A stretch of 64,000 nt of DNA, taken from Coprococcus sp. GTDB lineage: Bacteria > Bacillota_A > Clostridia > Lachnospirales > Lachnospiraceae. Under the pieces are notes generated by a model. It saw only the letters and a list, made by a program, of their open reading frames with translations, ran no database searches and was not told the origin of the DNA. The DNA is taken from positions 1-64,000 of the forward strand of contig JAGANU010000001.1 in NCBI GenBank assembly GCA_017624085.1, written 5' to 3'. Positions 28,769 to 62,983 of this stretch are shown here, piece after piece. Numbering within the stretch: position 1 is the first letter of the stretch; each line of letters opens with the position of its first letter. Both the position numbers and the translations under genes were made by a program.

Positions 28769-30847
28769 TTATTGTATATAAGACTTTATCGACTCAGTTG
28801 CTTTCCACTTTGAGAAGTTGAAGCTTCTCACATAGCCCTTCTCATCATTTTCTTCCTTAATGTCTTCAAGTACCTCAGCAAAGGTATCATCGCCTCCATG
28901 ATAGTAGGAACGTACAACGTAATCATCAGACTCTTCATCCAACAAGGTATCAGGATCTATGTCGTGCGATTTCAAGTAATCAACCAGGTAAGGTACTCCA
29001 TCGCAGCCTGTATCAATTACATAAGACATATCAATTTTATGTGTTCCATTCTCCGGATTAAGATTATAGCTTGCAATTACCGCACTTGGTCTGCAAAAAG
29101 CAAAGATAACAAGCATCATCATTACCGACATCACGGAGTAATTAAACAGTGGCAGGCTTTTTTTGAACATTTTAACAACAACACCGGTTAGCAGAACGGT
29201 TGTAGTAGCCAAAGCCCAAAGTGTATTAAATCTCATATATGTAAGATTGTACTCTGATATATACATAAACATTCGCATTGTAGCTGATGCAATCATAACA
29301 TAGGTACAGATACTCATGACAAAAAGTACGGTTCTAAGAAGAACACTCTTTGTAAATACCATATCGCATACCATAACTATACATACGTTAACAACAGCAA
29401 CAAAAAGCAGCTGGAAAAAGCCGGTTCTTGCGTACTCTGAATACGACATTGAATCAGGCAGACTTCCCTTATTCATAAAAAGATATATAATCTGAACTGC
29501 AACAAAGATTACATAGAATACTGTGAGTACTATACTGATTGTGCATCCAATTGTTGGGTCATAACGCTTAGAAGGACCCATTATTCCGTCCAGATCCCTT
29601 CTTGTAGCCTTCACCGCAACTCCATATGCAAAGAGGAATATTAAAAAGGCAAACAAAACGATCCTAACCAGATCCCATGACAGGAATATCTTTCCAAAAA
29701 CATCCTTTACAACCTTTCCAAATACAGGATCGGCAGATGCAAGTAGATTGAGAACTATAACGAGAATAGGCAAAACAATTATAAGTCCAATAACAATAGG
29801 TGTAGCCTTCTTATTTCGTACTTTCCCATTTCTTATATTGTCAGCTCTTCTGTCCTCGAACGGCTTTGCAAAATAGCATATAGGTGCCAGAATAAACTCC
29901 AACATGGAAAAGGCACCCTTTAATATATCCCAATCCTTTGTATAATTGAAATAATTAACTATTGCAAACATCTGGCACAAATACATACAAGTATTACACA
30001 CAAATATTACATATCCGTCTCCTGTCAGACATATAGCTATTGAAAACAATATGGAAAGAGCATACCAGGGTATTATTCTTGTTTGCTTTGAAAGTGCTTC
30101 TCCAAATAACAATATATCCCCATTCTTTTCTGCAGTATGTATCTCATATTTTGCAATACAAAATGTAATAAGTCCTACGGAGAACAGTGCTACCACCGCC
30201 GAGAGGATGCTTGACCAATTATCAAATAAACAAAAAGCACAGACAAGGGCGTATATAAAAATTGGTATACCTATAAGCTTTATTCTGTCTGCTGAAACAT
30301 TACGATTCACACGATTTACTGAAGCATTTCCAGGTCCCATGGCAGGCCCATACTGCGGACCTCTGTTCGGTCCCATATTCGGACCATACTGTGGACCTCT
30401 ATTCGCTCCCATATTCGGGCCATACTGTGGGCCTCTGTTCGGCCCCATATTCGGGCCATACTGCGGACCTCTGTTCGGTCCCATATTCGGTCCCATATTC
30501 GGGCCATACTGTGGCCCTGCATTTGGTCCCATGTTAGGACCATACTGTGGACCTCTATTTGGTCCCATGTTAGGACCATACTGTGGACTTCTATTTGGTC
30601 CCATGTTTTGGCCATACTGTGGGCCTCTATTTGGTCCCATGTTTTGTCCATACTGTGGCCCTGCATTTGGTACAGTATTCTGAATAGCTGAATAATCAGT
30701 ACTCTGACCAGATGATTCCTCAGCATTCTGAACAGCTGAATAATCCTTAGGTGTATCCACTAAAGACGCATCAGTCTGTGAAGTATCAGTCTGTGCAGCA
30801 TCAGTCTGTGCAACATCTCCCTGTGTCACAAAATTATCATTATCCAT
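28769..30847 (-). CDS. DUF4173-type membrane protein with Gly/Pro/Asn/Tyr-rich repeat region
   Basis: Membrane protein of 692 residues. Residues about 1-60 are Gln/Asp/Thr-rich; about 62-172 hold nine copies of a 12-residue repeat (GPQYGPNMGPNR and variants). From about 185 to 590 run ten or more hydrophobic helices with DUF4173 features (LLASADPVFGKV, SYSEYARTGFFQLLFV). The C-terminal about 90 residues are charged and probably outside the membrane. Function unknown. ATG 30847 is 5-6 nt after GGAGG; the longer frame begins inside the neighbour's end. The repetitive tail resembles that on the PrsW-like protein at 35 kb. Confidence 0.75.
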   Translation of the reverse strand: MDNDNFVTQGDVAQTDAAQTDTSQTDASLVDTPKDYSAVQNAEESSGQSTDYSAIQNTVPNAGPQYGQNMGPNRGPQYGQNMGPNRSPQYGPNMGPNRGPQYGPNMGPNAGPQYGPNMGPNMGPNRGPQYGPNMGPNRGPQYGPNMGANRGPQYGPNMGPNRGPQYGPAMGPGNASVNRVNRNVSADRIKLIGIPIFIYALVCAFCLFDNWSSILSAVVALFSVGLITFCIAKYEIHTAEKNGDILLFGEALSKQTRIIPWYALSILFSIAICLTGDGYVIFVCNTCMYLCQMFAIVNYFNYTKDWDILKGAFSMLEFILAPICYFAKPFEDRRADNIRNGKVRNKKATPIVIGLIIVLPILVIVLNLLASADPVFGKVVKDVFGKIFLSWDLVRIVLFAFLIFLFAYGVAVKATRRDLDGIMGPSKRYDPTIGCTISIVLTVFYVIFVAVQIIYLFMNKGSLPDSMSYSEYARTGFFQLLFVAVVNVCIVMVCDMVFTKSVLLRTVLFVMSICTYVMIASATMRMFMYISEYNLTYMRFNTLWALATTTVLLTGVVVKMFKKSLPLFNYSVMSVMMMLVIFAFCRPSAVIASYNLNPENGTHKIDMSYVIDTGCDGVPYLVDYLKSHDIDPDTLLDEESDDYVVRSYYHGGDDTFAEVLEDIKEENDEKGYVRSFNFSKWKATESIKSYIQ
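30331..30663. repeat. 36-bp tandem repeat (coding)
   Basis: Nine degenerate copies of a 36-bp unit encoding the 12-residue GPQYGPNMGPNR motif; one copy (around 30480-30495) has an extra NMGP insertion, a sign of slippage or unequal exchange. Confidence 0.9.
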
Positions 30848-30875
30848 TTTTACCTCCAACTCCTTATACAAACAA

Positions 30876-32684
30876 CTATCTTCCATTTACAAGCGTCATT
30901 TCATCCAGGCTCACAATCCTGTCCATACAAACAGGAGCAGTAAGTCTGTATGCAAAGCTTCCTGACTCAAAGAGACAGTACAGCTTTCCGTTGTATGAAT
31001 ATATCTGCTCAAGCTTCTGAGGTAGCTTAAGCTCCTGCCTTGGAGTTTCATCCTTATAATTTACTCCGGACAGCTTGCCAGATACAATATCATAAACCTC
31101 TATCTTAGATTCATCTATACCATATGATATAGAGAAAATGATTTCATTCTTATATACTTGAAGACCCTGTACTCTTCCCGGGATATAAAATGCCTCTGCC
31201 GGCTCATCTGAAATAGACACTCCACCATTTATTATCTCATAGCTGGCAGCCATGCTGTAAGTATTTTTGTCCTTCTTCCAATAGCCTGCATATATACGAC
31301 CGTCATATATAGTAATAAATGATGTTGCAGGGAACATTACCTTGCAGGTATTCCGATATGTGATAGGAACATGCTCCTTATCGAAATCATACGCTTCAAT
31401 TGAGCTAAGGGTCAGGCATGATATAGATGCCTTTCTTTTTTCGTTGTCACCTTCAGACTCTATATATGACGAAACCCAAAGAACATTGTTTTTTTCATCA
31501 TATGCAAGTCCTCCGGCATGTGTGGTATTTTTAAGCACTAGTGTCTTTATATACTCACCGCTCTTTGTATCCAGCACATATATTACTGATTTATGACCTT
31601 TAACACCGCAATAAGCGCTGACAAAAGTGTACTTCTCTGTAACAGCTATTCCCTGAGGTGTCATAGATGTGCAAGCAGAAACAGCACCGCCCCTGCCGCT
31701 TTTAAGTGTTTCGGCATACAAAAGACCCGGAATAACTGTAAGGTCATATTCGTTGCTGCCATCCTGCCCATATACACCCATATGATAAAACTCAGACTCT
31801 GTTGACATCTCCCACAACTGTGCAAGATATGTTTTATTATCGGCAGCAATAACACTTGTACCTGTTTCATCTGTAGGAAATTCAAAATTTCTGCAAACTA
31901 CAACGCTGTAAAGTGCTATGACTGAGATTCCGGCAAGATATAAAAAAGAAAAAACCTTTACAAGACCTCGTTTTGATTTTTCTATCGACAGAAGGGATGC
32001 CATAACCATCTGACTAATTATAGTTACAAGCATCATCACATTTGTGAGAATGTCCCCATGGCTAATAAGCTGAAGAGGCACTCCCAATATCATGAGCCAA
32101 TAGGCTTTTTCCTTCACTTTTATTCGCAAAGCACCATAAAAGCCTTCCCGTCCCATCGACCAAACCTGTATACTCTGCCATATGACCATAAGCCCGTACA
32201 CAATACAGATTATGTGAAGCAGTTGTCTTAAAATTGCAATCAATACGGCCTCTGCTGTCTCTCCGTTTATATAAAAAGCAAGGTAATACACCCCAAGAGA
32301 GAGCTGGTATATTCTCCACACGATCATGGAAATCATAGCAAAAAAAGCAATTATGGCAAAAAGCCCTGTGACAAGCCTTTTTCTTACGCCCTCTCTGTGG
32401 TCTCTCATGTCGCGTCTATATCTTTTTTTCAGTCTTGAAAGCTCTCTAATATGCTTTTTGGATTTTCGAACTTCCTTGGCCTTTTCACGAAGCATTTTAT
32501 GTGATTCATGCTTGTCCTTCATCAGGTCGTATTCGGCTTTTAAGCTGTCATACTTTAAAGTCTCTGCTTTAAGATCCTGCCTCGTCGTTTTTAGGGCTGC
32601 TCTGCTGGTCACATAACCTTCAAGGTCAATTTGAGCCTGTTCCTTAAGTTTTTCTGCCTGAAGCCTTAACTTTTCTTTTTTCAT
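30876..32684 (-). CDS. Coiled-coil membrane protein with extracellular beta-propeller-like domain
   Basis: Unrecognised protein of 602 residues in three parts. Residues 1-105 are a Lys/Glu/Leu-rich coiled coil, presumably cytoplasmic. About 105-265 hold five to six hydrophobic segments. About 270-602 has repeating blades (GGAVSACTSMTPQGIAVT, SVIYVLDTKSGEYIKTLVL, HAGGLAYDEKNNVLWV, IEVYDIVSGKLSGV) typical of YncE/PQQ-like beta-propellers, likely extracytoplasmic. It starts 4 nt after the COG0523 GTPase stop with only a weak ribosome site, so coupling is likely. Function unknown. Confidence 0.65.
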   Translation of the reverse strand: MKKEKLRLQAEKLKEQAQIDLEGYVTSRAALKTTRQDLKAETLKYDSLKAEYDLMKDKHESHKMLREKAKEVRKSKKHIRELSRLKKRYRRDMRDHREGVRKRLVTGLFAIIAFFAMISMIVWRIYQLSLGVYYLAFYINGETAEAVLIAILRQLLHIICIVYGLMVIWQSIQVWSMGREGFYGALRIKVKEKAYWLMILGVPLQLISHGDILTNVMMLVTIISQMVMASLLSIEKSKRGLVKVFSFLYLAGISVIALYSVVVCRNFEFPTDETGTSVIAADNKTYLAQLWEMSTESEFYHMGVYGQDGSNEYDLTVIPGLLYAETLKSGRGGAVSACTSMTPQGIAVTEKYTFVSAYCGVKGHKSVIYVLDTKSGEYIKTLVLKNTTHAGGLAYDEKNNVLWVSSYIESEGDNEKRKASISCLTLSSIEAYDFDKEHVPITYRNTCKVMFPATSFITIYDGRIYAGYWKKDKNTYSMAASYEIINGGVSISDEPAEAFYIPGRVQGLQVYKNEIIFSISYGIDESKIEVYDIVSGKLSGVNYKDETPRQELKLPQKLEQIYSYNGKLYCLFESGSFAYRLTAPVCMDRIVSLDEMTLVNGR

Positions 32685-43922: not shown

Positions 43923-43998
43923 AAAACAACAACACCTTTCAAATATAATACTATTCTTGATATACGAAATTCATTATAATATAAGTTCAAACAAAAAA

Positions 43999-44025
43999 CC
44001 ACTAGAGAGTCTTTCTCTCTAGTGG
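43999..44025. terminator. Intrinsic terminator of the ridA-OCD operon
   Basis: CCACTAGAGAG / CTCTCTAGTGG stem (43999-44009 and 44015-44025), loop of 5, followed on the minus strand by TTTTTT. It marks the end of the eight-gene catabolic operon. Confidence 0.88.
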
Positions 44026-44082
44026 CAATATTATTAGCACAGACACGACTACCCCTTTGCATTCGCACCCATGTTAATGTTA

Positions 44083-45225
44083 TTAGAATAAGTACGGCTT
44101 GTCCCAAAGGTTGAGCTTTGTTCCGATACCAAGCTCAAGTGCCTTCTCATAACACTTCTTACCCCATGCAACGTCTTCAACAGGCATTCCTCCTACTGAG
44201 TAGATGATAACCTCATCATCAGACTTTCGACCTTCCGCTTTTCCTGAAAGTATAGCGCCAAGATTAACTATCTTATCCTTTGTCAGCTTACCATCATGAA
44301 CAAGATCCATCCAGAGACAACCTGGAATATATACCTCGTTGTAAGTTGGATATGGATACTCTTCAGCCCAAGCCTCATAAAGCTTGATATTGTCACATAC
44401 AAGCTTAGCCTTGCCGCTACATATATAGTCATCTGAAAAATCGCCTGATCCTGGGATACAGAACAATGCGCCCGGCTTAATCCATGACTCATCTATGAAT
44501 GGATACTGGCTTCTGTCCATACCCATTGAAGTTGATGTGGCAAAGCTTAATATATCTGAATCCCTTACACACTCCTCAACTGTGTCAACAACCTGAATTG
44601 TTGTGAACTGTGGCAGATGCTCCTTTACATATTCTATGCATCTGTCAATCGAAGCCTTTCCTCGACCCTTAATCTTAAGTGTATCAAGTGTAGGACGTAG
44701 TGCGGCAAATGTTTCTACAGCCGTGATATTGATAACACCAGGACCAACAATACCAAGAACCTTAGCATCCTTAACGGCGAGATTCTTAACACCCACACCA
44801 GGAATTGCTGCTGTTCTATAAGCTGAAAGAAGGTTTGCTGACATAAGTGAAAGCGGAGCTCCTGTATCCTTGTCGTTGAGCATAACCATGAGGATTGATC
44901 GTGGAAGACCCTTCTCTCTGTTCTCTACATTTGAACCATACCACTTCATACCTGCCATAGCTGTCTCACCACCTACATAAGCAGGCATAGCCATGAATCT
45001 TCTGTCAGGTCCTGCCTTTGGCATGTTTGGAAATGGCGGATTCTCCGGAAATGATACCATGGTACCGTGTGAGTTACCATTCTCACCACCCATTATGTAA
45101 TCACCCTTATCCAGTGTGATAAGAAGCTCCTCCATACATTCTGTACAAGCTACTACATCATTTACACCAGCCTTAATCATATCCGGCTCACTTAAATATA
45201 ATAAGTCAATCTTTGCACTACTCAT
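44083..45225 (-). CDS. Ornithine cyclodeaminase/mu-crystallin family protein
   Basis: NAD(P)-binding protein of 380 residues related to ornithine cyclodeaminase, ketimine reductases and alanine dehydrogenase of this fold. MAMPAYVG, the core GMKWYGSNVENREKGLPRS and the Rossmann site VLGIVGPGVINIT (Gly-x-Gly-x2-Asn) are visible. Homologues are commonly labelled tyramine oxidase subunit B, a name I do not consider evidence of function. Last gene of the operon starting with ridA; a cyclodeaminase or imine-reducing step downstream of amine dehydrogenation fits context. AAGGAG precedes the ATG by 8-9 nt. Confidence 0.78.
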   Translation of the reverse strand: MSSAKIDLLYLSEPDMIKAGVNDVVACTECMEELLITLDKGDYIMGGENGNSHGTMVSFPENPPFPNMPKAGPDRRFMAMPAYVGGETAMAGMKWYGSNVENREKGLPRSILMVMLNDKDTGAPLSLMSANLLSAYRTAAIPGVGVKNLAVKDAKVLGIVGPGVINITAVETFAALRPTLDTLKIKGRGKASIDRCIEYVKEHLPQFTTIQVVDTVEECVRDSDILSFATSTSMGMDRSQYPFIDESWIKPGALFCIPGSGDFSDDYICSGKAKLVCDNIKLYEAWAEEYPYPTYNEVYIPGCLWMDLVHDGKLTKDKIVNLGAILSGKAEGRKSDDEVIIYSVGGMPVEDVAWGKKCYEKALELGIGTKLNLWDKPYLF

Positions 45226-45265
45226 AACAACACTCTCCTTTTCATATGATATGTATGTTTATAAA

Positions 45266-46666
45266 TTACTTTGCAACTTTTCTGTGATGCTCCGCATAGA
45301 GTTCGTTTTCCATCGCCATAACTTCCTTTATCGGATAAGCCTTAAACATAGGTTTCTTCATCTTGCACTTAACCCAGAAGAAAGCGTATATAGCAAGAAC
45401 AACTATAGTAATTCCGTCAATTGTATATAACTGTAGCTTCACATCCCATGAAGGATCCATATTGTATATCATGTATGCTGAACCAACAACACCAAGAATA
45501 GGAATAATAGGGCCAAGTGGAAGCTTGAAGTTTCGTGGTGCATTTGGCATCTTTCTTCTAAGTATAAGTACATCCACATTTGAAATGATGTAGCTTATGA
45601 GCCAGAGGATTGCAAGCACGGATATAAAGAATGCTACCTGGTCTGACGATGAAAGACCTGTTACGTTGATTATAATGAAGAACAAAGCCTCAAATACTAG
45701 TCCGATAACAGGAACGCCCTTCTTGTTTGTCTTCTGAAAGAACGCTGGAAGGAGACCTATTTTGGACATACCTGCGATAATATAAGCAAGACTTGACATC
45801 AGTGTGTTAATAGAACTTACTGTTGCAAATATGGCAACCGCCATCATCCAGTACTTTCCTATATTTCCAAGAACCATCTGTCCATAAAGCACATGTGGTG
45901 TACCGCTAGCTGAGAGTTCCTCCCATGGGGTATAATATGCAAAGCCATATGTAAGGATAATCTGCATAATAAGGATAATTACCATACTTAGTACCATACC
46001 AAGTGGAATGTTTCTCTTCGCATTCTTTACGTCCTTTGAAATTGGTACTACGTACTCACCTCCAACAAAGAGGAAGAACGCCGCACCACATAAGCCTGTA
46101 ACGCTTTTGAAATCAGAAGCAATCACACGTGGCTGATTTACTATCTCTCCGGTTCCTGCCTTTGCTGCTCCGATAATACCAAGGATAAACAAAGAACCGA
46201 TGAGGGCATATGCGACAAAATCCTGGATTTTGATAAACATGTCAACACCATTCAGGTTGACGCAAAACAGTATTCCTATAAGTATTGTGGCGTATACCCA
46301 GCTAGGGATTCCTGTATTTGGCAGAATTGCTTCGACAGTATTACCAAACATGGCACCTTCTACCGATCCTGCCAGTGAGTTACACAAGATATAACCACCT
46401 ACCATACATATAATAGTAAGAAATGGTCCTACGCAGGCAAGCGAGTACTGAGCCAGACCACCTGTAAGGTTTGGCATCAGTGAATTTAATTCCGAAATAG
46501 ATAAAAGAGTTAATATATTTACAATACAAGCTATTATCATAGAGATAATAAATGATGTTCCTATTGCTGATATACCTGCACCAAGTGTAAACAGACAACT
46601 AGATGCTACTACAAGTCCAACACCGGTTGCTACTACTCCAGCAAGTCCTATCTTCTTCTCATTCAT
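45266..46666 (-). CDS. APC-family amino acid permease
   Basis: Secondary transporter of 466 residues with about twelve helices. The APC consensus helix 1 region reads GLAGVVATGVGLVVASSCLFTLGAG, and the FVGGEYVVPISKDVKNAKRNIPLG segment matches helix 6 and the following loop. Likely an amino acid or amine permease or exchanger. GGAGG precedes the ATG by 7 nt. Within the ridA-OCD operon, directly after the P-II-like gene, giving the operon its own uptake or exchange system besides the divergent ABC transporter. Confidence 0.88.
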   Translation of the reverse strand: MNEKKIGLAGVVATGVGLVVASSCLFTLGAGISAIGTSFIISMIIACIVNILTLLSISELNSLMPNLTGGLAQYSLACVGPFLTIICMVGGYILCNSLAGSVEGAMFGNTVEAILPNTGIPSWVYATILIGILFCVNLNGVDMFIKIQDFVAYALIGSLFILGIIGAAKAGTGEIVNQPRVIASDFKSVTGLCGAAFFLFVGGEYVVPISKDVKNAKRNIPLGMVLSMVIILIMQIILTYGFAYYTPWEELSASGTPHVLYGQMVLGNIGKYWMMAVAIFATVSSINTLMSSLAYIIAGMSKIGLLPAFFQKTNKKGVPVIGLVFEALFFIIINVTGLSSSDQVAFFISVLAILWLISYIISNVDVLILRRKMPNAPRNFKLPLGPIIPILGVVGSAYMIYNMDPSWDVKLQLYTIDGITIVVLAIYAFFWVKCKMKKPMFKAYPIKEVMAMENELYAEHHRKVAK

Positions 46667-46705
46667 GAGCAGCCCTCCTTTTTATCATCAATGAACAACC
46701 AATAT

Positions 46706-47080
46706 TTACAGGTCGCCTTCTTTAAGAGCATCCGTGCCTTCCTCACCGGTTCGAACCCTAATAGCATTTGTAACTGGAAGAACAAATATCTTTCCATCAC
46801 CGATATGACCTGTATATAGTGATTTTTCAACGAAATCAAGAAAATCATCCACCTCTCTTGTTGGGAGAACCACCATAACTACCTGCTTGCTAAGAAGCTG
46901 TGGCTGTTCATTTTTGTCAGCCTCATATTCCTGGGTTCCAAGCTGAACACCACAGCCTTTCGCGTCGTATATAGTCATACCTGTTATTCCGAATTTTCCA
47001 AATTCCCTAGTCAGTTCAGCCACCTTTGCTTCCTTTGTAATAATCTGAACCATTGATAATTCCTCGATTGATACCTTCAT
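46706..47080 (-). CDS. P-II-family (GlnB-like) signalling protein
   Basis: P-II fold protein of 124 residues. It keeps GKFGITGMTIYDAKGCGVQ and the C-terminal signature IGDGKIFVLPVTNAIRVRTGEEGTDAL, in which GDGKIF and the basic residues bind nucleotide. The T-loop (about 45-65) is unlike canonical GlnB and lacks the uridylylated Tyr context. P-II proteins sense ATP/ADP and 2-oxoglutarate and often regulate transporters; its place just before an APC permease suggests that the permease is its target. GGAGG lies 8-9 nt before the ATG. Confidence 0.82.
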   Translation of the reverse strand: MKVSIEELSMVQIITKEAKVAELTREFGKFGITGMTIYDAKGCGVQLGTQEYEADKNEQPQLLSKQVVMVVLPTREVDDFLDFVEKSLYTGHIGDGKIFVLPVTNAIRVRTGEEGTDALKEGDL

Positions 47081-47133
47081 AATGTGTACCTCCTTTTCAC
47101 GTATACAAGTTTGTCTGTTTCTCTATCTAAAGC

Positions 47134-48270
47134 CTATAATTTAGCCTTAAATCTACCATAGGCAAGTCCGCTTATATCTACGCTTGTCCTACCCTCTGTT
47201 ATCAGCATGGCAAGCTGATCTCCTACTGCCGGCCCTATACCAAAGCCATGTCCCGAAAAGGCACATGCAACTACAAGTCCCGGGGCCTCATCCACGAATC
47301 CAAGTACGGGAACACCATCCTGACATATATCGATGAATCCTGCCCACGTTCTCACAATCTTTGCATCAGCAAGATCCGGGAAGTATTTCATAATTCCTCT
47401 GCAGATGCAAGGTGCAGTAATACTTTGATTACTAGGTGAGTTCTTTGGTCCTTCATCTCTATTATTAGGCTCAAGACCTGACGAACCACCAAATACAAAT
47501 GATCCATGATCAGACTGATGTCCATAAAAATCAGCCTCTGCAGTTCCTAGCATCTGATTGAACATATGTGGCTCTGCCTCTGTAACAAGACACTCGACAA
47601 GCTCCTTGTGCATTGGGACATCAACTCCGATAGTATTTAGGATATCTCTTGACTCATATCCGGCAGCTATCATTACAAACTCGCCCTGATATGTATCATT
47701 TTCAGTTATTACCTCTTTTACCCTGCCTCTTATTTTTCTTAGTCTTACAACCTTTTCACCGGTGATAAATCTTACGCCCCGCTTTCTTGCGGCTCTATAA
47801 AATGCTAGTGTGGTTACCATCGGATTGGCATGTCCATCTGTAGGACACCAGCTTGCTCCAATTACCTCATCAGACAAATAAGGATTAATTTCCTTAACCT
47901 CCTTGGCATCTATCATTCTTACATCAAGTCCAACCGCCTTAGCTCTATCTGTAAGTCCCTGAAGAATCTCCAGATGCTTCTCAGTTTTTCCAAGTCTGAG
48001 ATTGCCCTCTTTATGGTATTCACAGTCTACTCCAAGCTCAATGGACAATTCCGGCCATAGCTCCCTGATACCATACATGGCCAGTGGTAATTCCCTTGGG
48101 TCCCTTCCTGACTGTCTTACGCCACCACCATTTCTTGATGATCCACCATTTCCTATATTGTCACTAGCCTCAAGAACTATTACTGATTTACCTCTTTTAC
48201 TAAGATAGTACGCAGTAGCGCATCCTATGATTCCACCGCCAACTATTACTACATCCGCTGTATTTTCCAT
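47134..48270 (-). CDS. DAO-type FAD oxidoreductase (opine/glycine/sarcosine oxidase beta-like)
   Basis: D-amino-acid-oxidase-fold flavoprotein of 378 residues. The N-terminal dinucleotide site VVIVGGGIIGCATAYYLSKRG, followed by SSRNGGGVRQSGRD, and a C-terminal GFVDEAPGLVVACAFSGHGFGIGPAVG are typical of sarcosine/glycine oxidases and the OoxB/HcnC catalytic subunits of opine and D-hydroxyproline dehydrogenases. It would oxidise the C-N bond of a secondary amine or amino acid. Only 2 nt separate it from the BFD-like gene. Electrons likely pass to the FAD/Fe-S partner. GAGGAGG precedes the ATG. Confidence 0.87.
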   Translation of the reverse strand: MENTADVVIVGGGIIGCATAYYLSKRGKSVIVLEASDNIGNGGSSRNGGGVRQSGRDPRELPLAMYGIRELWPELSIELGVDCEYHKEGNLRLGKTEKHLEILQGLTDRAKAVGLDVRMIDAKEVKEINPYLSDEVIGASWCPTDGHANPMVTTLAFYRAARKRGVRFITGEKVVRLRKIRGRVKEVITENDTYQGEFVMIAAGYESRDILNTIGVDVPMHKELVECLVTEAEPHMFNQMLGTAEADFYGHQSDHGSFVFGGSSGLEPNNRDEGPKNSPSNQSITAPCICRGIMKYFPDLADAKIVRTWAGFIDICQDGVPVLGFVDEAPGLVVACAFSGHGFGIGPAVGDQLAMLITEGRTSVDISGLAYGRFKAKL

Positions 48271-48272
48271 AG

Positions 48273-48593
48273 CTAGTCCTCCTCTTTACCAAGAACCTTC
48301 ATTTCAATAGGTCTCATTGGAGATCTTGCTGTTGCAGGCTCAAGCTCTGCCGGTGATACTCCAAGCTCCTTTGCCACTATTGCTTTAACAAGCTTGGCGC
48401 AGGTCTGCCCCTGACATAGACCCATGCCGGTTCGAAGAAACCTTCTGACCTCTGTCATTGTCCACATTCCATCATGCACAGCCCTTCTAATCTCGCCCTT
48501 AGTAATCTCCTCGCATCTACAAATCAGCATTCCGTCATCCGGCTGTGGCACATATTCACCTATATCCTTTGATCTATCAACAACTGAATTCAT
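48273..48593 (-). CDS. BFD-like [2Fe-2S]-binding protein
   Basis: Small protein of 106 residues with a bacterioferritin-associated-ferredoxin-type fold: CRCEEITKGEIRRAV and later GLCQGQTC, giving the Cys-x-Cys...Cys-x4-Cys 2Fe-2S pattern. In opine oxidase A subunits this domain is fused to the FAD protein; here it is a separate polypeptide between the two flavoproteins, which argues for a multi-subunit complex. Confidence 0.87.
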   Translation of the reverse strand: MNSVVDRSKDIGEYVPQPDDGMLICRCEEITKGEIRRAVHDGMWTMTEVRRFLRTGMGLCQGQTCAKLVKAIVAKELGVSPAELEPATARSPMRPIEMKVLGKEED

Positions 48594-48604
48594 AGTCTAC
48601 CTCC

Positions 48605-50182
48605 TTAGCTACACTGAAAAAATCTAGCCCTCATAGCATACTCTTTTGGAACCTTCATTGTAAGAAGATTTGTATGGTCAAAAGCAGGAACACTCTTAAC
48701 AGCTACAACCTCAGCCTCACATACCGGCTTACCAGATCGATCGAGACCGAATCCCTTTTCTCCAATTGAAGGCAGAGGAAGAAACTCATAAGGTAGGGTA
48801 ACTGTTGCTGTTCCATCTCCGAGATCTTCATCTACAAGGAATATTGCCTGTCCTGAACAGCTTGCCACACACATTCCACAATTGATGCAATCCTTGTCAT
48901 CTGTCACAAACGGCAGGTTTGTTATATTATTACCTATTGATATGCAGCCTTTTGGACAGGCGTCCTGACATGGATTACAAGGTATATTCTGTGTACACTC
49001 CATAACAGGATGAACACCCTTTTTATGTGTAATACCAGGAAATCTTTCTATCTCTTCATCATCCACATAGCCCTTTTTCAGAAGACTCATGGATACTTCT
49101 ATTCCTTCATCAGTCTTTTCAACAAGCTTGCCGCGCATATTTGGTGCAAACATACCCTGTCTGAGGCTCTCCAAGTCCTCCTTCAGCTTTGAAACCTCTG
49201 CAGTTTTTTCTTCCGAAGTACAATATCCCAAGTATTCTGACACGCACACTCCGGCAATCCTTCCCTGGATCATTGCTGAGGATGCCTCTTCAATTCCCGA
49301 CACATCTCCGGCTGCAAATATGCCAGATACGGAGGTCTCACCATACTCATCAATCACCGGAACCTGGCCTCCTCTCCTTGGATCATCAACCATGCTGCAG
49401 CCCGACATTTTCAGAAGCTGGCTCATAGGTGAAAGTCCAACAGCCATACAGATTGTATCTACATCAAAATATTTGTCTGTTCCCGGAACAGGCTTAAAGG
49501 AACTGTCTACCTCACTTATGGTTACACCGGTTACTTCTGTATCACCATGTGCCTTTGTTATTGTATGTGATAAGTAAAATGGAACTCCGCACCTTGCTAC
49601 CTTTGAGGCATGCACTCCGTATCCACCTATTCTAGGAGCTGCATCTACAAGTGCAACCACCTTACAGCCTGCCTGAAGGAGCTGAAATGAAACCACCAAC
49701 CCAACATTTCCTGAACCGAGCATAAGCACCCGCTTACCCGGCTTTATGCCGTGAAGATTCATCATAGTCTGTGCTGCACCTGCTCCTATAACACCAGGAA
49801 GTGTCCAGCCTGGAAATGTCACCATGTTTTCAGCAGCACCGGTTGCAACAATTACCGTGTCTCCCTTGTAGTGCTTTATACGATCTCCGATTCTTACATT
49901 TACCTCTTTATTGGAATAAAGTCCAATTACAGTGGCACCAAGCATAACATTTACACCGGCATCTGAGGCTTCCTTAAGGAGCTCCTCTCCAATTTTAAAG
50001 CCTCTTATCTTTGCATGATGCTCTTTCGAACCAAAAAACTTATGTATCTGTTTAAAAAGCTGTCCACCCGGCTTATCATTTTCATCAAATACTATTACCT
50101 TAAGTCCTCTCTTTGCTGCCTCTATTGCAGCTGATAAACCGGACGGACCAGCACCTACTATAATTACTTCGTATCGTTCCAT
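48605..50182 (-). CDS. FAD/NAD(P)-dependent oxidoreductase with 2[4Fe-4S] ferredoxin domain
   Basis: Flavoprotein of 525 residues similar to opine oxidase/HcnB alpha subunits. FAD motif VIIVGAGPSGLSAAIEAAKRG at the N-terminus, NAD(P) motif RVLMLGSGNVGLVVSF, FAD site ISGIFAAGDVSGIEEAS. About residues 390-450 carry two 4Fe-4S motifs (CTQNIPCNPCQDACPKG and CINCGMCVASCSG). The ferredoxin domain suggests electrons go to a low-potential carrier rather than oxygen. ATG 50182 follows AAAGG by 9 nt; ATGs at 50188 and 50191 are too near. Confidence 0.87.
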   Translation of the reverse strand: MERYEVIIVGAGPSGLSAAIEAAKRGLKVIVFDENDKPGGQLFKQIHKFFGSKEHHAKIRGFKIGEELLKEASDAGVNVMLGATVIGLYSNKEVNVRIGDRIKHYKGDTVIVATGAAENMVTFPGWTLPGVIGAGAAQTMMNLHGIKPGKRVLMLGSGNVGLVVSFQLLQAGCKVVALVDAAPRIGGYGVHASKVARCGVPFYLSHTITKAHGDTEVTGVTISEVDSSFKPVPGTDKYFDVDTICMAVGLSPMSQLLKMSGCSMVDDPRRGGQVPVIDEYGETSVSGIFAAGDVSGIEEASSAMIQGRIAGVCVSEYLGYCTSEEKTAEVSKLKEDLESLRQGMFAPNMRGKLVEKTDEGIEVSMSLLKKGYVDDEEIERFPGITHKKGVHPVMECTQNIPCNPCQDACPKGCISIGNNITNLPFVTDDKDCINCGMCVASCSGQAIFLVDEDLGDGTATVTLPYEFLPLPSIGEKGFGLDRSGKPVCEAEVVAVKSVPAFDHTNLLTMKVPKEYAMRARFFQCS

Positions 50183-50199
50183 CTTCATCATCCTTTCCG

Positions 50200-50508
50200 C
50201 TACAAGGCAGTTACTCCGTTCTGAGTCTGTACAACCATTCCTTCACGAAGAGGTGTAACGCATGTTCTTACATTTGGCTTACCATCAACAACCATGACAC
50301 AATCCGTACACCTTCCTATCGCACAAAAGACTCCTCTGGGCATATGCTTCTTCTTCGTATATCTGTGAATCATTACACCATTTGCCTTTAGTGCCATTGC
50401 GATTGGTTCTCCCTCACAGCCGGTCATCAATGTGCCGTCAAATGTGAATGTAACCTTTTTTCCTTTATCAATAACTCCAAGTATTGGGTGGTTTTCTATC
50501 CTGCTCAT
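50200..50508 (-). CDS. [2Fe-2S]-binding protein (HcnA/OoxC-like)
   Basis: Protein of 102 residues with a ferredoxin-like 2Fe-2S binding loop: FCAIGRCTDCVMVVDG and a fourth Cys in VRTCVTPL. It corresponds to the N-terminal domain of sarcosine oxidase alpha subunits and to HcnA of D-hydroxyproline dehydrogenase. ATG 50508 follows GGAGG by 7 nt; ATG 50514 is too close. Between ridA and the FAD/4Fe-4S gene. Confidence 0.87.
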   Translation of the reverse strand: MSRIENHPILGVIDKGKKVTFTFDGTLMTGCEGEPIAMALKANGVMIHRYTKKKHMPRGVFCAIGRCTDCVMVVDGKPNVRTCVTPLREGMVVQTQNGVTAL

Positions 50509-50546
50509 CTGCATTCCTCCCAGCTAAAAACTAATTTTACGAAAAG

Positions 50547-50945
50547 CTATGCTCCACAGCCTATGAATGCTTCCATCTCAATTTCCACCAGCTGTGTCGG
50601 TCTGTTGAGTCTAGAAATCTCTACCACTGTGTTCAGTGGTCTTATATCATGGAAGAACTCTGAGTAAGCATCGCATATCTTACCACCCTGGGTAATATCT
50701 GTTGTGTATATCTTTATGCTTATTACATCTTCTTTACTTGCGCCTGCCTGCTCTAACAGCTTTATCTGTTTATCCAGCACATATTTTGTCTGCTCATATG
50801 CGTCTTCTCCATATACAGTTCCATCAGGCTGAACTGAAGTAGTTCCTCCAACCTTTACAAAGGGGCCAACCTTTACCATTCTCGAATATCCTACTTTTTC
50901 CTCAAGTGGTGCACCTGAACTGTAATTTACTCTTGTAAATTCCAT
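50547..50945 (-). CDS. RidA family (enamine/imine deaminase-like) protein
   Basis: YjgF/YER057c/UK114-fold protein of 132 residues, trimeric in relatives, which hydrolyses reactive enamine/imine intermediates formed during amino acid oxidation. Visible: VKVGGTTSVQPDG, the long helix DVISIKIYTTD and the conserved RPLNTVVEISRLNRPTQLVEIEMEAF with the ligand-binding Arg and Glu. First gene of the operon, fitting removal of imines produced by the amine dehydrogenase. AGAGG precedes the ATG by 8 nt. Confidence 0.9.
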   Translation of the reverse strand: MEFTRVNYSSGAPLEEKVGYSRMVKVGPFVKVGGTTSVQPDGTVYGEDAYEQTKYVLDKQIKLLEQAGASKEDVISIKIYTTDITQGGKICDAYSEFFHDIRPLNTVVEISRLNRPTQLVEIEMEAFIGCGA

Positions 50946-51002
50946 AAAAACTACCTCTCTTTCATATATAAGTTTTTAAGCTAATGCTTTTTAGTGAGTA
51001 AT

Positions 51003-51042
51003 AACAAAGGCGTCCATACTTCTAGGTATGAACGCCTTTGTT
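51003..51042. other. Strong hairpin inside divergent ridA-lysR intergenic region
   Basis: AACAAAGGCGT / ACGCCTTTGTT (51003-51013 and 51032-51042) plus CATAC/GTATG (51015-51019 and 51026-51030), one internal mismatch. Followed on the plus strand by TTTTTT at 51050-51055. It lies between two divergent operons where a terminator is not expected. The rest of the 317-nt gap contains the lysR promoter and a second terminator. Confidence 0.7.
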
Positions 51043-51138
51043 CTAGGGATTTTTTACATGCCTAAACATTATCACATCCAAATCAAATGGAAAAACAGAA
51101 AAATATATGAGGAGTTAAACCATTTAGTTGAAATAAAT

Positions 51139-51167
51139 TTGACATGCAAATTTTCATGTTGTAATAT
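51139..51167 (+). promoter_or_regulatory. Sigma-A promoter of lysR
   Basis: TTGACA (51139-51144), 17-nt spacer, TAATAT (51162-51167). Predicted start near 51174. Confidence 0.8.
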
Positions 51168-51183
51168 AATGAAAGATGCAAGG

Positions 51184-51213
51184 GCGCACGAGTTTTCGTG
51201 TGCTTTTTTTTTT
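51184..51213 (+). terminator. Promoter-proximal intrinsic terminator (attenuator) before lysR
   Basis: GCGCACGA-GTTT-TCGTGTGC stem-loop followed by ten T residues, only about 10 nt downstream of the predicted transcription start and 50 nt before the lysR ATG. Transcripts stopping here would be about 40 nt. Confidence 0.8.
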
Positions 51214-51262
51214 GGATATGTATCAGCTTTACCATATTTGTACCAAACGAGGAGGAAAATAT

Positions 51263-52168
51263 ATGAATCAAAGACAGCTTAAGTACTTTCTTTCCATATA
51301 TAAACATAAAAGCATCACAAAGGCCGCTGAGGAAATGTATATCTCCCCTCAGGGAATAAGCAAGACCCTGGCCTTGCTTGAATCAGAGCTGGGTGTATCC
51401 CTGTTTGAGCATAAAAGCAACAGCATTGTTCCAACGAAAGCTGCAAACAGACTGGCATGCCACGCAAAAAATCTGCTTGCTGAATACGACTATATAACAA
51501 ACAGCTTGTTTACTGACGGAAACACAAAGAATGAACTGCTGATTCACTGTTCTTACGATGTACCGCAGCTTTTATCTCCAGTCTTTTTTTCAGAGTTTAA
51601 CGCAAGACATCCGGAGATTCTTATTAAGCTGCAGGAATATCCGGATGCCGATATTCTAAATGCAGTCTCAAAAAACAAAATTGAGCTGGCAATTGTAGCA
51701 GGTCCACTTAATTACAAGAAATTAAACTGCGAGCTTCTATGCTCTGAGCCTTTTTGCATTGTAGTGAACAAGGGGCACCCTCTTGCCTCGTACAAAGAAA
51801 TATCTATCAGACAGCTTGATGATGTTCCGCTGGCAGTTAAGGATATGTCCAATCCTGATAGCATACAGCAATATGATGAGTTGCTTAAGAACAATATCAT
51901 TCCGAACATTATCATCGAGACAACTGATGCCCACCTTATTCATAAGATGGCTGAGGATAATATTGCAGCAGGCATGAGCCTAATGTATCTGGCGAAAAAA
52001 ATACGATCACCAAATATTGTCGTTATTCCATTTAAAGAAAAGTGGCTAAGCAAAAGCATATACATTGTATCAAACAAAAATGACACATTAAGCTATATCG
52101 CAAAAACCTTTAAAGAGTGCTTAATGTTAACAATGGGTTCTTCCCATGAGAGTAATTTGCTTCCATAA
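51263..52168 (+). CDS. LysR-family transcriptional regulator
   Basis: Regulator of 301 residues: winged helix-turn-helix (FLSIYKHKSITKAAEEMYIS, then GISKTLALLESELG) and an effector domain. ATG 51263 has GAGGAGG 7-8 nt upstream. It is divergent from the ridA-led operon and followed by an amino-acid ABC transporter, the position of OccR/NocR in Agrobacterium opine regions. It likely activates both sides with the catabolic substrate as ligand. Its own expression may be attenuated by the terminator at 51184. Confidence 0.88.
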   Translation: MNQRQLKYFLSIYKHKSITKAAEEMYISPQGISKTLALLESELGVSLFEHKSNSIVPTKAANRLACHAKNLLAEYDYITNSLFTDGNTKNELLIHCSYDVPQLLSPVFFSEFNARHPEILIKLQEYPDADILNAVSKNKIELAIVAGPLNYKKLNCELLCSEPFCIVVNKGHPLASYKEISIRQLDDVPLAVKDMSNPDSIQQYDELLKNNIIPNIIIETTDAHLIHKMAEDNIAAGMSLMYLAKKIRSPNIVVIPFKEKWLSKSIYIVSNKNDTLSYIAKTFKECLMLTMGSSHESNLLP

Positions 52169-52236
52169 CTTCAGTAAAACCTCAAGGATATATGCACTAC
52201 TTATGTCAAAAGCCCCACTCTCAAGACAAATATGGA

Positions 52237-52269
52237 TTGAATTTTGATAACATTGATGCTATAGTTATC
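52237..52269 (+). promoter_or_regulatory. ABC-transporter promoter with candidate LysR site
   Basis: TTGAAT (52237-52242), 17-nt spacer, TATAGT (52260-52265). An inverted repeat GATAAC-N12-GTTATC (52246-52251 and 52264-52269) overlaps spacer and -10, resembling an LTTR dyad. Confidence 0.6.
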
Positions 52270-52301
52270 TGCGTATAAAAATACGAAAGGAAGGTATAAT
52301 T

Positions 52302-53177
52302 ATGAAAAAAACGAAAAAGATTTTATCAATGGTTCTTGTGGCTTCACTTGCAATTGCTTCACTTACAGCATGTGGTGGCAGTGATAACAAGGATGAAAAG
52401 AAGGCTTCAGCTAAGACAAAGGTTATCGAGGTTAACCTTACAGATGAGGAGTACGCTTTTGGTGTTGACAAGACTCAGCCAGAGCTTCTTACTCAGGTAA
52501 ATGATTTTATTGATGAGATTAAGAGTAATGGAACATTTGACGATATATGTAACCACTACTTTGGAGACGGAGAGCCTGTTGGTGTTACCTCTGCAACACT
52601 TGATACAACAAAGGATCAGCTTGTCGTTGCTACAAATGCTGCTTTCGAGCCATTTGAGTATACACAGGGTGACACATACTATGGTATTGATATGGAGATT
52701 GCAGACGCACTTGCTAAGAAGCTTGGCAAGGAGCTTGTAATCCAGAATATGGATTTTGATGCTGTATGTCTCTCAGTTGGTCAGCAGAAGTGCGACATCG
52801 CTATGGCCGGTCTTACAATCAAACCGGACCGCGAGGAGTATGTAACATTCTCAAAGTCATACTACAACGCTTCACAGAAGCTTGTTGTTATGGAAGACAA
52901 CACAGAGTTTGATGATTGTGCTGATGCAGCTGCAATTGAGACGATTCTTAAGGGTAAGGACAGCTCAGTAAAGGTTGGCGTTCAGACAGGAACAACAGGC
53001 CAGTTCTATTGCGAAGGCGATGACGACTGGGGCTTTGCCGGATTTGGTATGACAACAGTTGGTTATAAGAATGGTTCTCTTGCAGTTCAGGATCTTATCA
53101 ATGGTAACATCAATTATGTTATTATCGACTCAGCTCCTGCAAAGTGCATAACTGATTCAATCAACAAGTTACAGTAG
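52302..53177 (+). CDS. Amino acid ABC transporter substrate-binding lipoprotein, circularly permuted
   Basis: Lipoprotein of 291 residues: signal peptide with lipobox LTAC (Cys24). The core (about 107-291) is the usual SBP_bac_3 start (LVVATNAAFEPFEY, YYGIDMEIADALAKKLG, CDIAMAGLTI) but it ends at VIIDSAPAKCITDS. The segment normally found at the extreme C-terminus (TDEEYAFGVDKTQPEL, then VNDFIDEIKSNGTF and ICNHYFG) is instead at residues about 45-90, just after the lipobox. The order of lobes is therefore permuted. First gene of SBP-permease-ATPase. AAGGAAGG precedes the ATG. Confidence 0.9.
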   Translation: MKKTKKILSMVLVASLAIASLTACGGSDNKDEKKASAKTKVIEVNLTDEEYAFGVDKTQPELLTQVNDFIDEIKSNGTFDDICNHYFGDGEPVGVTSATLDTTKDQLVVATNAAFEPFEYTQGDTYYGIDMEIADALAKKLGKELVIQNMDFDAVCLSVGQQKCDIAMAGLTIKPDREEYVTFSKSYYNASQKLVVMEDNTEFDDCADAAAIETILKGKDSSVKVGVQTGTTGQFYCEGDDDWGFAGFGMTTVGYKNGSLAVQDLINGNINYVIIDSAPAKCITDSINKLQ

Positions 53178-53188
53178 AAAGGATTTAT

Positions 53189-53899
53189 ATGGAATCATTT
53201 ATCCTAAAAATCGAAAAGTTCTTAGAAATATTTATTGAGTATAAAGGATATGTTAAGGTGCTTGAGGGCTTAAAGAATACCCTTATTATCGCTGTTATCG
53301 GCCTATTAATCGGTATCGTGATTGGTATTCTTATTGCAACAGTTCGTGTTATTCCAAAGTATAAGCTACTGCCAAGAATACTCAATGCAATATGCGGTTT
53401 TTATGTCAATCTTTTCCGTGGTGCTCCTATGGTTGTTCAGCTCCTGGTTTTCTATTATGTACTGATGCCACTTCTTGGGCTCCATATGACAGGCGTCCAG
53501 GTTGCCATAATTGTTTTTGGTATAAACAGCGGTGCTTATATATCTGAAATAATGCGAAGTGGTATTCAGTCTGTTGACAAGGGACAGATGGAAGCAGGAC
53601 GTGCTGTCGGACTTAGCTTCGGAACTACAATGATGAAAATAGTTATTCCTCAGGCAATTAAAAACATTCTTCCTACACTTGGAAATGAGTTTATTGCATT
53701 GATTAAGGAAACATCTGTTGTAAGCTTTGTAGGTGCAGCCGATCTCTATGTTGCATTTAACTACATCGGAAGCAACAGCTACGAGTTCATGGTTCCATAT
53801 CTGGTAATGGCAATTATATATATCTTGCTGGTACTCATAATCAGTTTATTTGTGAAGTTATTAGAAAGGAGCCTTGGAAAGAGTGATAGACGTAATTAA
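53189..53899 (+). CDS. Amino acid ABC transporter permease
   Basis: Membrane component of 236 residues, HisMQ/GlnP type, about five helices. The EAA loop that docks the ATPase is [36 protein letters not shown] is another family motif. AAAGG precedes the ATG. Overlaps the ATPase gene. Confidence 0.94.
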
Positions 53900-54707
53900 T
53901 CTTGAAAAACACTTTGGTGATAACAAAGTGCTTAATGGTATAAACCTTACAATTGAAAAGGGCGATATCATGGTAATTATCGGTCCTTCCGGCTCCGGTA
54001 AGAGTACATTTCTAAGATGTCTCAACTGTATGGAAGACCCATCTGGCGGAGAAATCATATTCAACGGTGAGAATATTGCAGACATGAAGGTTGATATCAA
54101 CAAACATCGTCAGCATATGGGTATGGTCTTCCAGCACTTCAATCTGTTTAACAATAAGACTGTTATGCAGAATATTATGCTTGCCCCTGTCCATGTTCAG
54201 ACAAAGAGACTTAACAAGCTTAAGAGACAGAATGTATGGATAAAGCTTACCAACACATTCCGCAAGAACAAGCGTGAGCTTAATGAGATTACAACAACTA
54301 AGCAGGAAATTATCGATTCAGCTAAAGAGAAGGCTACTTCTCTTCTAACCTCAATCGGTCTTCTTGACAAGGCAGATGTTTATCCTTCTACTCTGTCAGG
54401 TGGTCAGAAACAGCGAGTTGCCATAGTTCGTGCTCTGGCAATGAACCCGGATGTTATCCTCTTTGACGAGCCTACCTCCGCACTCGACCCTGAAATGGTT
54501 GGCGAGGTGCTTGATCTCATGAAGAAGCTTGCAAATGAGGGAATGACAATGGTTATCGTTACCCATGAGATGGGCTTTGCCCGTGAGGTTGCCAACAAAG
54601 TAATCTTCATTGATGAAGGTCAGATTCTTGAAAGTGGAACTCCTGAGGAATTCTTTGGAAACCCTAAGAACCCACGACTAAAGGATTTCCTTTCAAAAGT
54701 ATTATAA
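53883..54707 (+). CDS. Amino acid ABC transporter ATP-binding protein
   Basis: ATPase of about 274 residues, GlnQ-like. Walker [11 protein letters not shown]-loop [10 protein letters not shown], signature LSGGQKQR, Walker [13 protein letters not shown] and the switch His in VTHEM are intact. An extra basic segment of about 40 residues (around 108-147) sits between the Q-loop and the signature where relatives are short. No ATG is available; GTG 53883 (AAAGGAG 11 nt upstream) gives the normal family N-terminus [12 protein letters not shown], while TTG 53874 is too close. Overlaps the permease by 17 nt. Confidence 0.92.
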
Positions 54708-62690: not shown

Positions 62691-62983
62691 AAAAAAATCC
62701 TTGACAGAATAATAAAATCTGTCAAGGACGGATAATCTAATATAATCCGCGGTGCCACCTTGAATTCACGAATACTCGTGCACTTTGCAGGATACAAACA
62801 TATCCCTGGCAATTAACGTATGCCATAACGTCGCAGAATACTCTGGATATAAGCATCCATTTGACTGCGCCCTCCGCGGTCCATTTGATAATGTGTATCT
62901 AACCTGACTCTCAGCAACACAGGCTCTCTGTATAGGCATCACTACCGTTATCTCCGCTTCAACGGTTTAATCTACTAAATTCT
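62691..62983 (-). promoter_or_regulatory. T-box leader, tryptophan-type, of trp operon
   Basis: A T-box riboswitch of about 290 nt senses uncharged tRNA. The T-box sequence GGTGGCACCGCGG is on the minus strand at 62747-62759. The competing terminator stem TCCTTGACAGA / TCTGTCAAGGA (62698-62708 and 62718-62728) is followed by seven T. The 5' half shows typical stem I elements. TGG triplets followed by A occur at 62881-62883 and 62857-62859 in the expected specifier region, matching Trp. It fills the 373-nt gap upstream of trpE together with the second terminator. Confidence 0.93.

What the first reader, a model, noticed from the sequence alone, without database searches (positions are those of the whole stretch)
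44083..54707. Anaerobic opine/secondary-amine catabolic island resembling Agrobacterium occ/noc regions
Seen: eight same-strand genes (ridA, 2Fe-2S, FAD+2[4Fe-4S], BFD-like 2Fe-2S, DAO-type FAD, P-II-like, APC permease, ornithine-cyclodeaminase-like), then a divergent LysR and an amino-acid ABC transporter. Established: octopine/nopaline regions pair LysR regulators (OccR/NocR), amino-acid ABC transporters, two-subunit opine oxidases (OoxA/OoxB) and ornithine cyclodeaminase; HcnABC has the same three redox parts. Inference: this is a clostridial version in which a ferredoxin-type domain replaces oxygen as electron sink, RidA clears imine products and the cyclodeaminase-like protein processes the released amino acid. 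I know of no described system with exactly this set.
Basis: partly seen in the sequence, partly recalled or inferred. Interest (0 to 1): 0.75.

Follow-up and report, generated by a model that had tools for sequence, protein, structure and literature searches.

The report
Anaerobic amine-oxidation operon, carrier-type
A rumen-type bacterium carries a conserved eight-gene operon that probably breaks down simple amines without oxygen by first attaching them to a carrier acid and then splitting off an aldehyde; it resembles known amine pathways but is built from a different set of enzymes.

Summary
The eight-gene operon is real and at the stated place; its core recurs in Clostridia, Coriobacteria and Treponema. 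It is not an occ/noc-type island. The cyclodeaminase-like protein (OCD) is not an ornithine cyclodeaminase: it belongs to the family NCBI names 'tyramine oxidase subunit B', and its best-scoring solved relative is SbnB, which acts on an N-substituted glutamate. The ABC transporter is not conserved with it. The redox set is sarcosine-oxidase alpha split into three genes without its C-terminal part, plus a beta-like DAO subunit. In five genomes related redox genes lie directly behind an N-methylglutamate-synthase-like gene set; the four read in full have the whole set plus RidA and no OCD at the site. That swap, with aldehyde-, ammonia- and amine-handling neighbours in a minority of loci, favours this reading: OCD reductively joins a primary amine to a 2-oxoacid (probably 2-oxoglutarate), and the flavo-iron-sulfur complex cleaves the N-alkyl amino acid to aldehyde plus amino acid. 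The secondary amine would then be an internal intermediate, not the food. Substrate, acceptor and direction are inferred. Confidence in the carrier mechanism is about 0.45. I call it a new variant of a known kind (N-methylglutamate/saccharopine-type pathways).

The parts
50547..50945 (-). RidA-family imine/enamine deaminase (132 aa), first gene
   Evidence: PF01042, 76 bits; also present in the four MGS-linked versions read in full, which lack OCD
50200..50514 (-). 2Fe-2S protein (Fer2_4, 104 aa), corresponds to SoxA model positions 10-102
48605..50191 (-). FAD/NAD-type oxidoreductase with C-terminal 2[4Fe-4S] motif (528 aa; 'HcnB' in my tables), corresponds to SoxA model positions 170-493 plus a ferredoxin-like tail
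   Evidence: cysteine motif read from the sequence
48273..48593 (-). BFD-like 2Fe-2S protein (106 aa), corresponds to SoxA model positions 523-594
47134..48270 (-). DAO-type FAD subunit (378 aa), SoxB/proline-dehydrogenase-beta-like; proposed N-alkyl amino acid dehydrogenase
46706..47080 (-). P-II-family protein, proposed partner of the permease
   Evidence: PF00543; next to a transporter gene in 69 of 71 cases in OCD loci
45266..46666 (-). APC-family permease, proposed amine uptake
   Evidence: PF13520
44083..45225 (-). OCD/mu-crystallin-family dehydrogenase of NF004848; proposed N-alkyl amino acid synthase
43998..44026 (-). terminator-like hairpin and T-run behind the operon
   Evidence: consensus match only
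51263..52168 (+). divergent LysR regulator (start chosen at 51263; a longer frame starts at 51176)
   Evidence: a LysR homologue near OCD in 22 of 106 loci
52302..54707 (+). neighbouring amino-acid ABC transporter (binding protein, permease, ATPase); probably not part of the conserved system
   Evidence: binding protein near OCD in 0 of 106 other loci

Best explanation
The operon oxidises a primary amine without oxygen by a carrier cycle. (1) The APC permease, with the P-II protein as its regulator, brings in the amine. (2) The OCD-family enzyme condenses the amine with a 2-oxoacid, most likely 2-oxoglutarate, and reduces the imine with NAD(P)H, giving an N-alkyl amino acid (an opine-like secondary amine). 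(3) The four-part complex (DAO flavin, BFD and Fer2 2Fe-2S, FAD+2[4Fe-4S]) oxidises the other carbon next to nitrogen; with RidA helping hydrolysis, an aldehyde and the free amino acid (glutamate) are released and the electrons go to NAD+ or ferredoxin. (4) Glutamate dehydrogenase would regenerate 2-oxoglutarate and release ammonia; alcohol or aldehyde oxidoreductases take the aldehyde. Shown: gene content, conservation, predicted fold, conserved carboxylate-site residues, gene swaps. Inferred: substrate, carrier acid, direction, complex formation, electron acceptor, P-II role, RidA role.
For: Swap: five genomes have an MgsC 76% or more identical to that of L203 or L205 (G103, G511, G342, G732, G607). 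In five of five Fer2 and HcnB lie directly behind MgsC; the four read in full have GMAS-MgsA-MgsB-MgsC-Fer2-HcnB-BFD-DAO-RidA and no OCD in the 20 kb fetched, while G511 was seen only from MgsA to HcnB. G342 has no OCD match at all; G103 has an OCD-linked copy elsewhere (L147). Domains fit N-methylglutamate synthase and GMAS (make-up in passages of PMC6237917). The HcnB quick tree puts the four MGS-linked copies at two places among OCD-linked ones. OCD: best solved relative is SbnB, solved with 2-oxoglutarate and with an N-substituted glutamate (entry titles). The Arg-Lys-Arg that binds the substrate carboxyl in P. putida OCD (passage of PMC3840593) is matched by R76, K94, R137, invariant in 161 of 161 rows, so the protein should bind a carboxylate although its family is named for tyramine. 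OCD-family tauropine dehydrogenase acts in opine metabolism of a sponge (passages). DAO: best folds are sarcosine oxidase beta and proline dehydrogenase beta. Neighbours in 106 OCD loci: iron alcohol dehydrogenase 11, PotD 8, Amt 12, glutamate dehydrogenase 6, EutB 1, EutC 2; where present, 11 of 13 alcohol dehydrogenase and 11 of 12 Amt genes lie within 2 kb of a core gene. A sister complex sits with aldehyde ferredoxin oxidoreductase in 4 of 5 fetched loci. 12 of 12 plasmid loci read carry OCD-RidA-FAD oxidoreductase, with an aldehyde dehydrogenase in the stretch in 6 of 12.
Confidence: 0.45

Rival explanations
1. Direct amine dehydrogenase: the DAO complex oxidises a primary amine to an imine, RidA hydrolyses it to aldehyde and ammonia, and the OCD protein is a second subunit or an alanine/glutamate-type dehydrogenase that re-assimilates ammonia.
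Against: DAO's nearest folds act on N-alkyl or cyclic amino acids; it does not explain why an N-methylglutamate-synthase-like set stands in place of OCD.
Confidence: 0.22
2. Amino-acid inversion or imino-acid reduction: the DAO complex oxidises a D- or cyclic amino acid to an imino acid and OCD reduces it to the L-form, as in DauA/DauB (recalled) or the proline/hydroxyproline routes with an OCD-type reductase.
Against: Aldehyde, polyamine and ammonium neighbours and the synthase swap are unexplained.
Confidence: 0.15
3. Opine or secondary-amine catabolism: the opine is imported, the DAO complex splits it, and OCD processes the released amino acid.
Against: OCD is not an ornithine cyclodeaminase; the ABC binding protein is not conserved with the set; the opine dehydrogenase is a weaker fold match than sarcosine oxidase beta.
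Confidence: 0.13

Closest known systems
N-methylglutamate pathway (GMAS, MgsABC, MgdABCD) of methylamine oxidation
   Same: Logic proposed here: amine is put on an amino-acid carrier, then a sarcosine-oxidase-like dehydrogenase frees aldehyde plus glutamate (pathway in passages of PMC6237917); relatives of the window's redox genes stand behind an MgsABC-like set in five genomes.
   Different: In the window a single OCD-family enzyme stands where MgsABC and GMAS would be; none of these hits the window; the dehydrogenase lacks the C-terminal part of SoxA and carries a 2[4Fe-4S] motif.
OCD-RidA-FAD oxidoreductase clusters of Proteobacteria ('tyramine oxidase subunit B', NF004848)
   Same: Same OCD family, 53-56% identity, with RidA and a DAO-type flavoprotein in 12 of 12 loci read of 607 matching plasmid records, APC permease in 9 of 12 stretches.
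   Different: One DAO-type protein of 430-438 aa in the two measured, 26-29% to the window DAO in four loci, stands for the four-part iron-sulfur complex.
SbnB and CmnK, OCD-family enzymes of diaminopropionate formation
   Same: SbnB is the best solved relative by sequence and by VIA-align; entry titles show an N-substituted glutamate, 2-oxoglutarate and NAD bound.
   Different: Below the NCBIfam SbnB cut-off (165 of 327 bits); catabolic-looking, not siderophore or antibiotic, context.
Dye-linked L-proline dehydrogenase (1y56) and heterotetrameric sarcosine oxidase
   Different: About 27-29% identity; SoxA C-terminal part missing; linked to OCD, P-II and a permease.
Agrobacterium occ/noc opine regions
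   Same: LysR, ABC transporter, DAO and OCD superfamilies all present in the window.
   Different: OCD is of another family, ABC not conserved, iron-sulfur parts extra. The make-up of occ/noc is recalled, not tested against named proteins.

Membership tests
NF004848 'tyramine oxidase subunit B' (OCD superfamily) | score over the curated cut-off | tested here: met
   554 bits against 362
NF004848 'tyramine oxidase subunit B' (OCD superfamily) | activity on tyramine | not testable with these tools
   The experimental basis of the name was not found: searches; Arcos et al. 2010 seen only as a reference entry
Ornithine cyclodeaminase | score over the curated cut-off | tested here: not met
   NF005762 57 bits against 350
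occ/noc opine catabolic region | amino-acid ABC transporter as a conserved partner | tested here: not met
   binding protein near OCD in 0 of 106 other loci; it is next to the operon in the window
occ/noc opine catabolic region | OoxA/OoxB-type two-subunit opine oxidase | tested here: inconclusive
   best-ranked plasmid match 33% for DAO, 24-34% in the 15 rows listed for the FAD subunit; no named OoxA or OoxB was compared
occ/noc opine catabolic region | OccR/NocR-type LysR | tested here: inconclusive
   LysR domains met; the 25 best NCBIfam models shown are all below cut-off; no named OccR or NocR was compared
N-methylglutamate pathway | MgsABC and GMAS present | tested here: not met
   no hit of L203 GMAS, MgsA, MgsB, MgsC in the window at 1e-5; MgsC in 0 and GMAS in 1 (L071) of 106 OCD loci
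N-methylglutamate pathway | dehydrogenase of the SoxB/SoxA families over cut-off | tested here: not met
   soxB 134 bits against 529; SoxA pieces 22-131 bits against 1164
N-methylglutamate pathway | N-alkylglutamate as intermediate | not testable with these tools
   needs biochemistry
P-II signal proteins | Pfam P-II domain over cut-off | tested here: met
   74.1 bits against 25
P-II signal proteins | GlnB/GlnK-type equivalog models of NCBIfam | tested here: not met
   68.6 bits against 181 and 65.1 against 202

The most novel reading that the evidence does not exclude
A second, independently built carrier pathway for primary amines: an OCD-family opine-forming dehydrogenase replaces N-methylglutamate synthase and hands an N-alkyl-glutamate to an O2-independent, ferredoxin-type SoxAB-like complex, so that gut and sediment anaerobes oxidise amines such as ethanolamine, polyamines or aromatic amines; a P-II protein gates an APC permease, a partner class that I do not recall from published P-II systems.
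Probability: 0.38. Interest if true: 0.8.

Novelty: new variant of a known kind. Interest (0 to 1): 0.62.

Why it matters
If true, it would explain how anaerobes of rumen, gut and sediment use amines without oxygen, give a testable function to an OCD family now named only 'tyramine oxidase subunit B', and show that N-alkyl amino acid carriers were built twice from unrelated enzymes. It would also put a P-II protein next to an APC-type permease.

Tried and rejected
Rejected: true ornithine cyclodeaminase; ABC transporter as a core part; mobile or phage cargo (no confirmed relative in viral contigs; in phage records six matches, the best 48% in a short faecal record). EutABC linkage was first read as a strong hint to ethanolamine-derived opines; it lies inside the operon in one locus only (L055), so it is given low weight. 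Literature searches for the basis of 'tyramine oxidase subunit B' and for an OCD-based amine pathway found nothing that describes it; searches for P-II with APC transporters gave nothing relevant. Arcos et al. 2010 was seen only as a reference entry. What I remember of a P. putida U tyn cluster, of PotN, of DauA/DauB, of SbnB's direction and of occ/noc is recalled.

Limits. Trees are quick trees; the careful DAO tree was not finished. In the DAO tree (two MGS-linked rows) L205 joins the long branch L204, which may be false; the HcnB tree carries the claim, and the AOR-linked outgroup I meant to add fell out there by my filters. Gene labels in locus tables are BLAST labels from the window's genes plus a few added queries, not full annotation, and no background rate for neighbours was measured on random genes. 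The 106 loci exclude short-flank loci (L085-L144, L173-L202, L221-L249) and the plasmid loci L001-L004 and L165-L172, hold one place twice (L057 and L215), are not independent by ancestry, and many end at contig ends. The 161 rows were limited to OCD hits above 38% identity and hold repeats. One search kept the best 80 of 548. One search scored only the 7997 candidates sharing most words.
Full report
Observation. The eight minus-strand genes lie at 44083-50945 with gaps of 2-53 bases. A terminator-like hairpin follows OCD (consensus match only). The divergent LysR and an amino-acid ABC transporter are there too. No whole genome is held for the window; the nearest OCD relatives, 91% identical, include MAGs of rumen Lachnospiraceae and Pseudobutyrivibrio.

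Conservation. Of these 80, 18 have exactly the window's eight-gene order, 23 all eight genes somewhere in the locus, 64 both HcnB and DAO. Of 106 OCD loci with longer flanks, 84 have DAO, 82 HcnB, 82 BFD and 79 Fer2 within 9.5 kb; RidA 44, P-II 70, APC 68, AraC 50, LysR 22, ABC binding protein 0. In 391 genomes drawn from one class, 9 of the 10 with HcnB at 60% or more also have OCD over the cut-off, against 11 with OCD in all. OCD without the complex exists: 22 of 106 loci, some at contig ends, and genome G010 lacks HcnB at 1e-60. The complex without OCD or MGS nearby exists too: L204, L206, L207.

The swap. Genome G103 has a second copy of the redox set without OCD (L203). In front of it lie a glutamine-synthetase-like gene, a class II amidotransferase, a GXGXG protein and an FMN glutamate-synthase protein. 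That is the make-up of GMAS and MgsA, MgsB, MgsC (passages of PMC6237917). The MgsC is 45-48% identical to plasmid proteins in the 12 rows listed; the two of these whose surroundings I read stand beside sarcosine-oxidase-family genes and glnT. Scans of 67 genomes of the order, 391 of the class and 398 of the phylum gave five genomes with MgsC at 76% or more to L203 or L205 (their own included): G103, G511, G342, G732, G607. All five have Fer2 and HcnB directly behind MgsC; four, read in full, also have BFD, DAO and RidA and no OCD in the stretch; G511 was seen only in a 4.3 kb stretch. Six further genomes with MgsC at 43-54% (best match each) were fetched; none has this complex, two have a DAO-type gene of 25-28% identity nearby, and one of those has Amt and P-II. 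In the HcnB quick tree the four MGS-linked copies fall at two places among OCD-linked ones. I read this as an exchange of the enzyme that supplies the N-alkyl amino acid while the dehydrogenase stays.

Neighbours. Iron alcohol dehydrogenase genes lie near OCD in 11 of 106 loci; of 13 found in the wider set, 6 lie within 400 bases and 11 within 2 kb of a core gene. PotD in 8 of 106; NCBIfam ranks PotA and PotD models first for the L162 genes. Ammonium transporter 12, of which 11 within 2 kb of a core gene; glutamate dehydrogenase 6. EutA, EutB, EutC lie inside the operon of L055; L155 has EutC 4.8 kb away, L158 two EutA fragments. In a sister complex (HcnB 44-47%, DAO 25-35%), 4 of 5 fetched loci have a 4Fe-4S protein and aldehyde ferredoxin oxidoreductase behind DAO. 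In 12 of 12 plasmid loci read, chosen among the best-ranked of 607 records, OCD, RidA and one FAD oxidoreductase follow each other; an aldehyde dehydrogenase lies in the stretch in 6 of 12, directly behind in 2. These fit an aldehyde product and an amine substrate; each alone is weak, and no background rate was measured. In the window none of the alcohol dehydrogenase, glutamate dehydrogenase, Amt or Eut queries has a hit.

P-II. In OCD loci the P-II gene is next to a transporter in 69 of 71 cases: APC 55, Amt 9, PotA 5. The APC-linked P-II (46% or more identical to the window) differs from the Amt-linked (33-41%) and Pot-linked (29-35%) ones, so P-II goes with the transporter rather than with the enzymes.

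Mechanism. Carrier cycle: amine + 2-oxoacid + NAD(P)H to N-alkyl amino acid (OCD); N-alkyl amino acid to aldehyde + amino acid + two electrons (complex, RidA). With glutamate as carrier, glutamate dehydrogenase would close the cycle and pay back the NAD(P)H. An OCD-family enzyme of opine metabolism is known, tauropine dehydrogenase of a sponge (passages of PMC4113996 and PMC3840593; that its amine, taurine, has no alpha-carboxylate is general knowledge). Rivals are given in their field; direct amine dehydrogenation and imino-acid reduction are the strongest.

Known or new. It works, on this reading, like the N-methylglutamate pathway but is not a member: MgsABC and GMAS are absent from the window and the dehydrogenase is below the Sox cut-offs. 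It shares the OCD-RidA-DAO trio with the proteobacterial clusters. Literature searches found no description of an OCD-based version; most subscription papers are not in that library.

Noticed in passing
window 52302-53177 (+): The ABC binding protein looks circularly permuted: residues 106-281 match positions 11-172 of a solved amino-acid-binding protein and residues 35-89, at the N-terminus, match its C-terminal end 179-233. The binding protein beside L155 gave no such second match to it.
   Followed up: partly
46706-47080 and OCD loci: P-II genes sit next to three unrelated transporter kinds (APC 55, Amt 9, PotA 5 of 71), each with its own range of identity to the window's P-II.
   Followed up: partly
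L150, L151, L156, L161, L162: Two OCD paralogues in one cluster, each cluster with at least one at 43-48% identity to the window's, together with Pot-type ABC genes, P-II and an iron alcohol dehydrogenase.
   Followed up: partly
L208-L211: A related Fer2/FAD/BFD/DAO set is followed by a 4Fe-4S protein and aldehyde ferredoxin oxidoreductase.
   Followed up: partly
L071:17-1252: A glutamine-synthetase-family gene directly upstream of OCD, the only one among 106 OCD loci.
   Followed up: no
window 51180-51207 (+): Terminator-like hairpin with a long T-run in front of the LysR gene, possibly a leader attenuator.
   Followed up: no
L057: OCD family member beside an antiporter-like and an M20-peptidase-like gene (read by eye from the sequence) in a genome with no HcnB match at 1e-60.
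   Followed up: no
window 62721-62971 (-): T-box leader before the tryptophan-type gene run (gene run by reading).
   Followed up: no
window 28769-30886 (-): Membrane-type protein with a long GPN-rich repeat near its N-terminus (read by eye).
   Followed up: no
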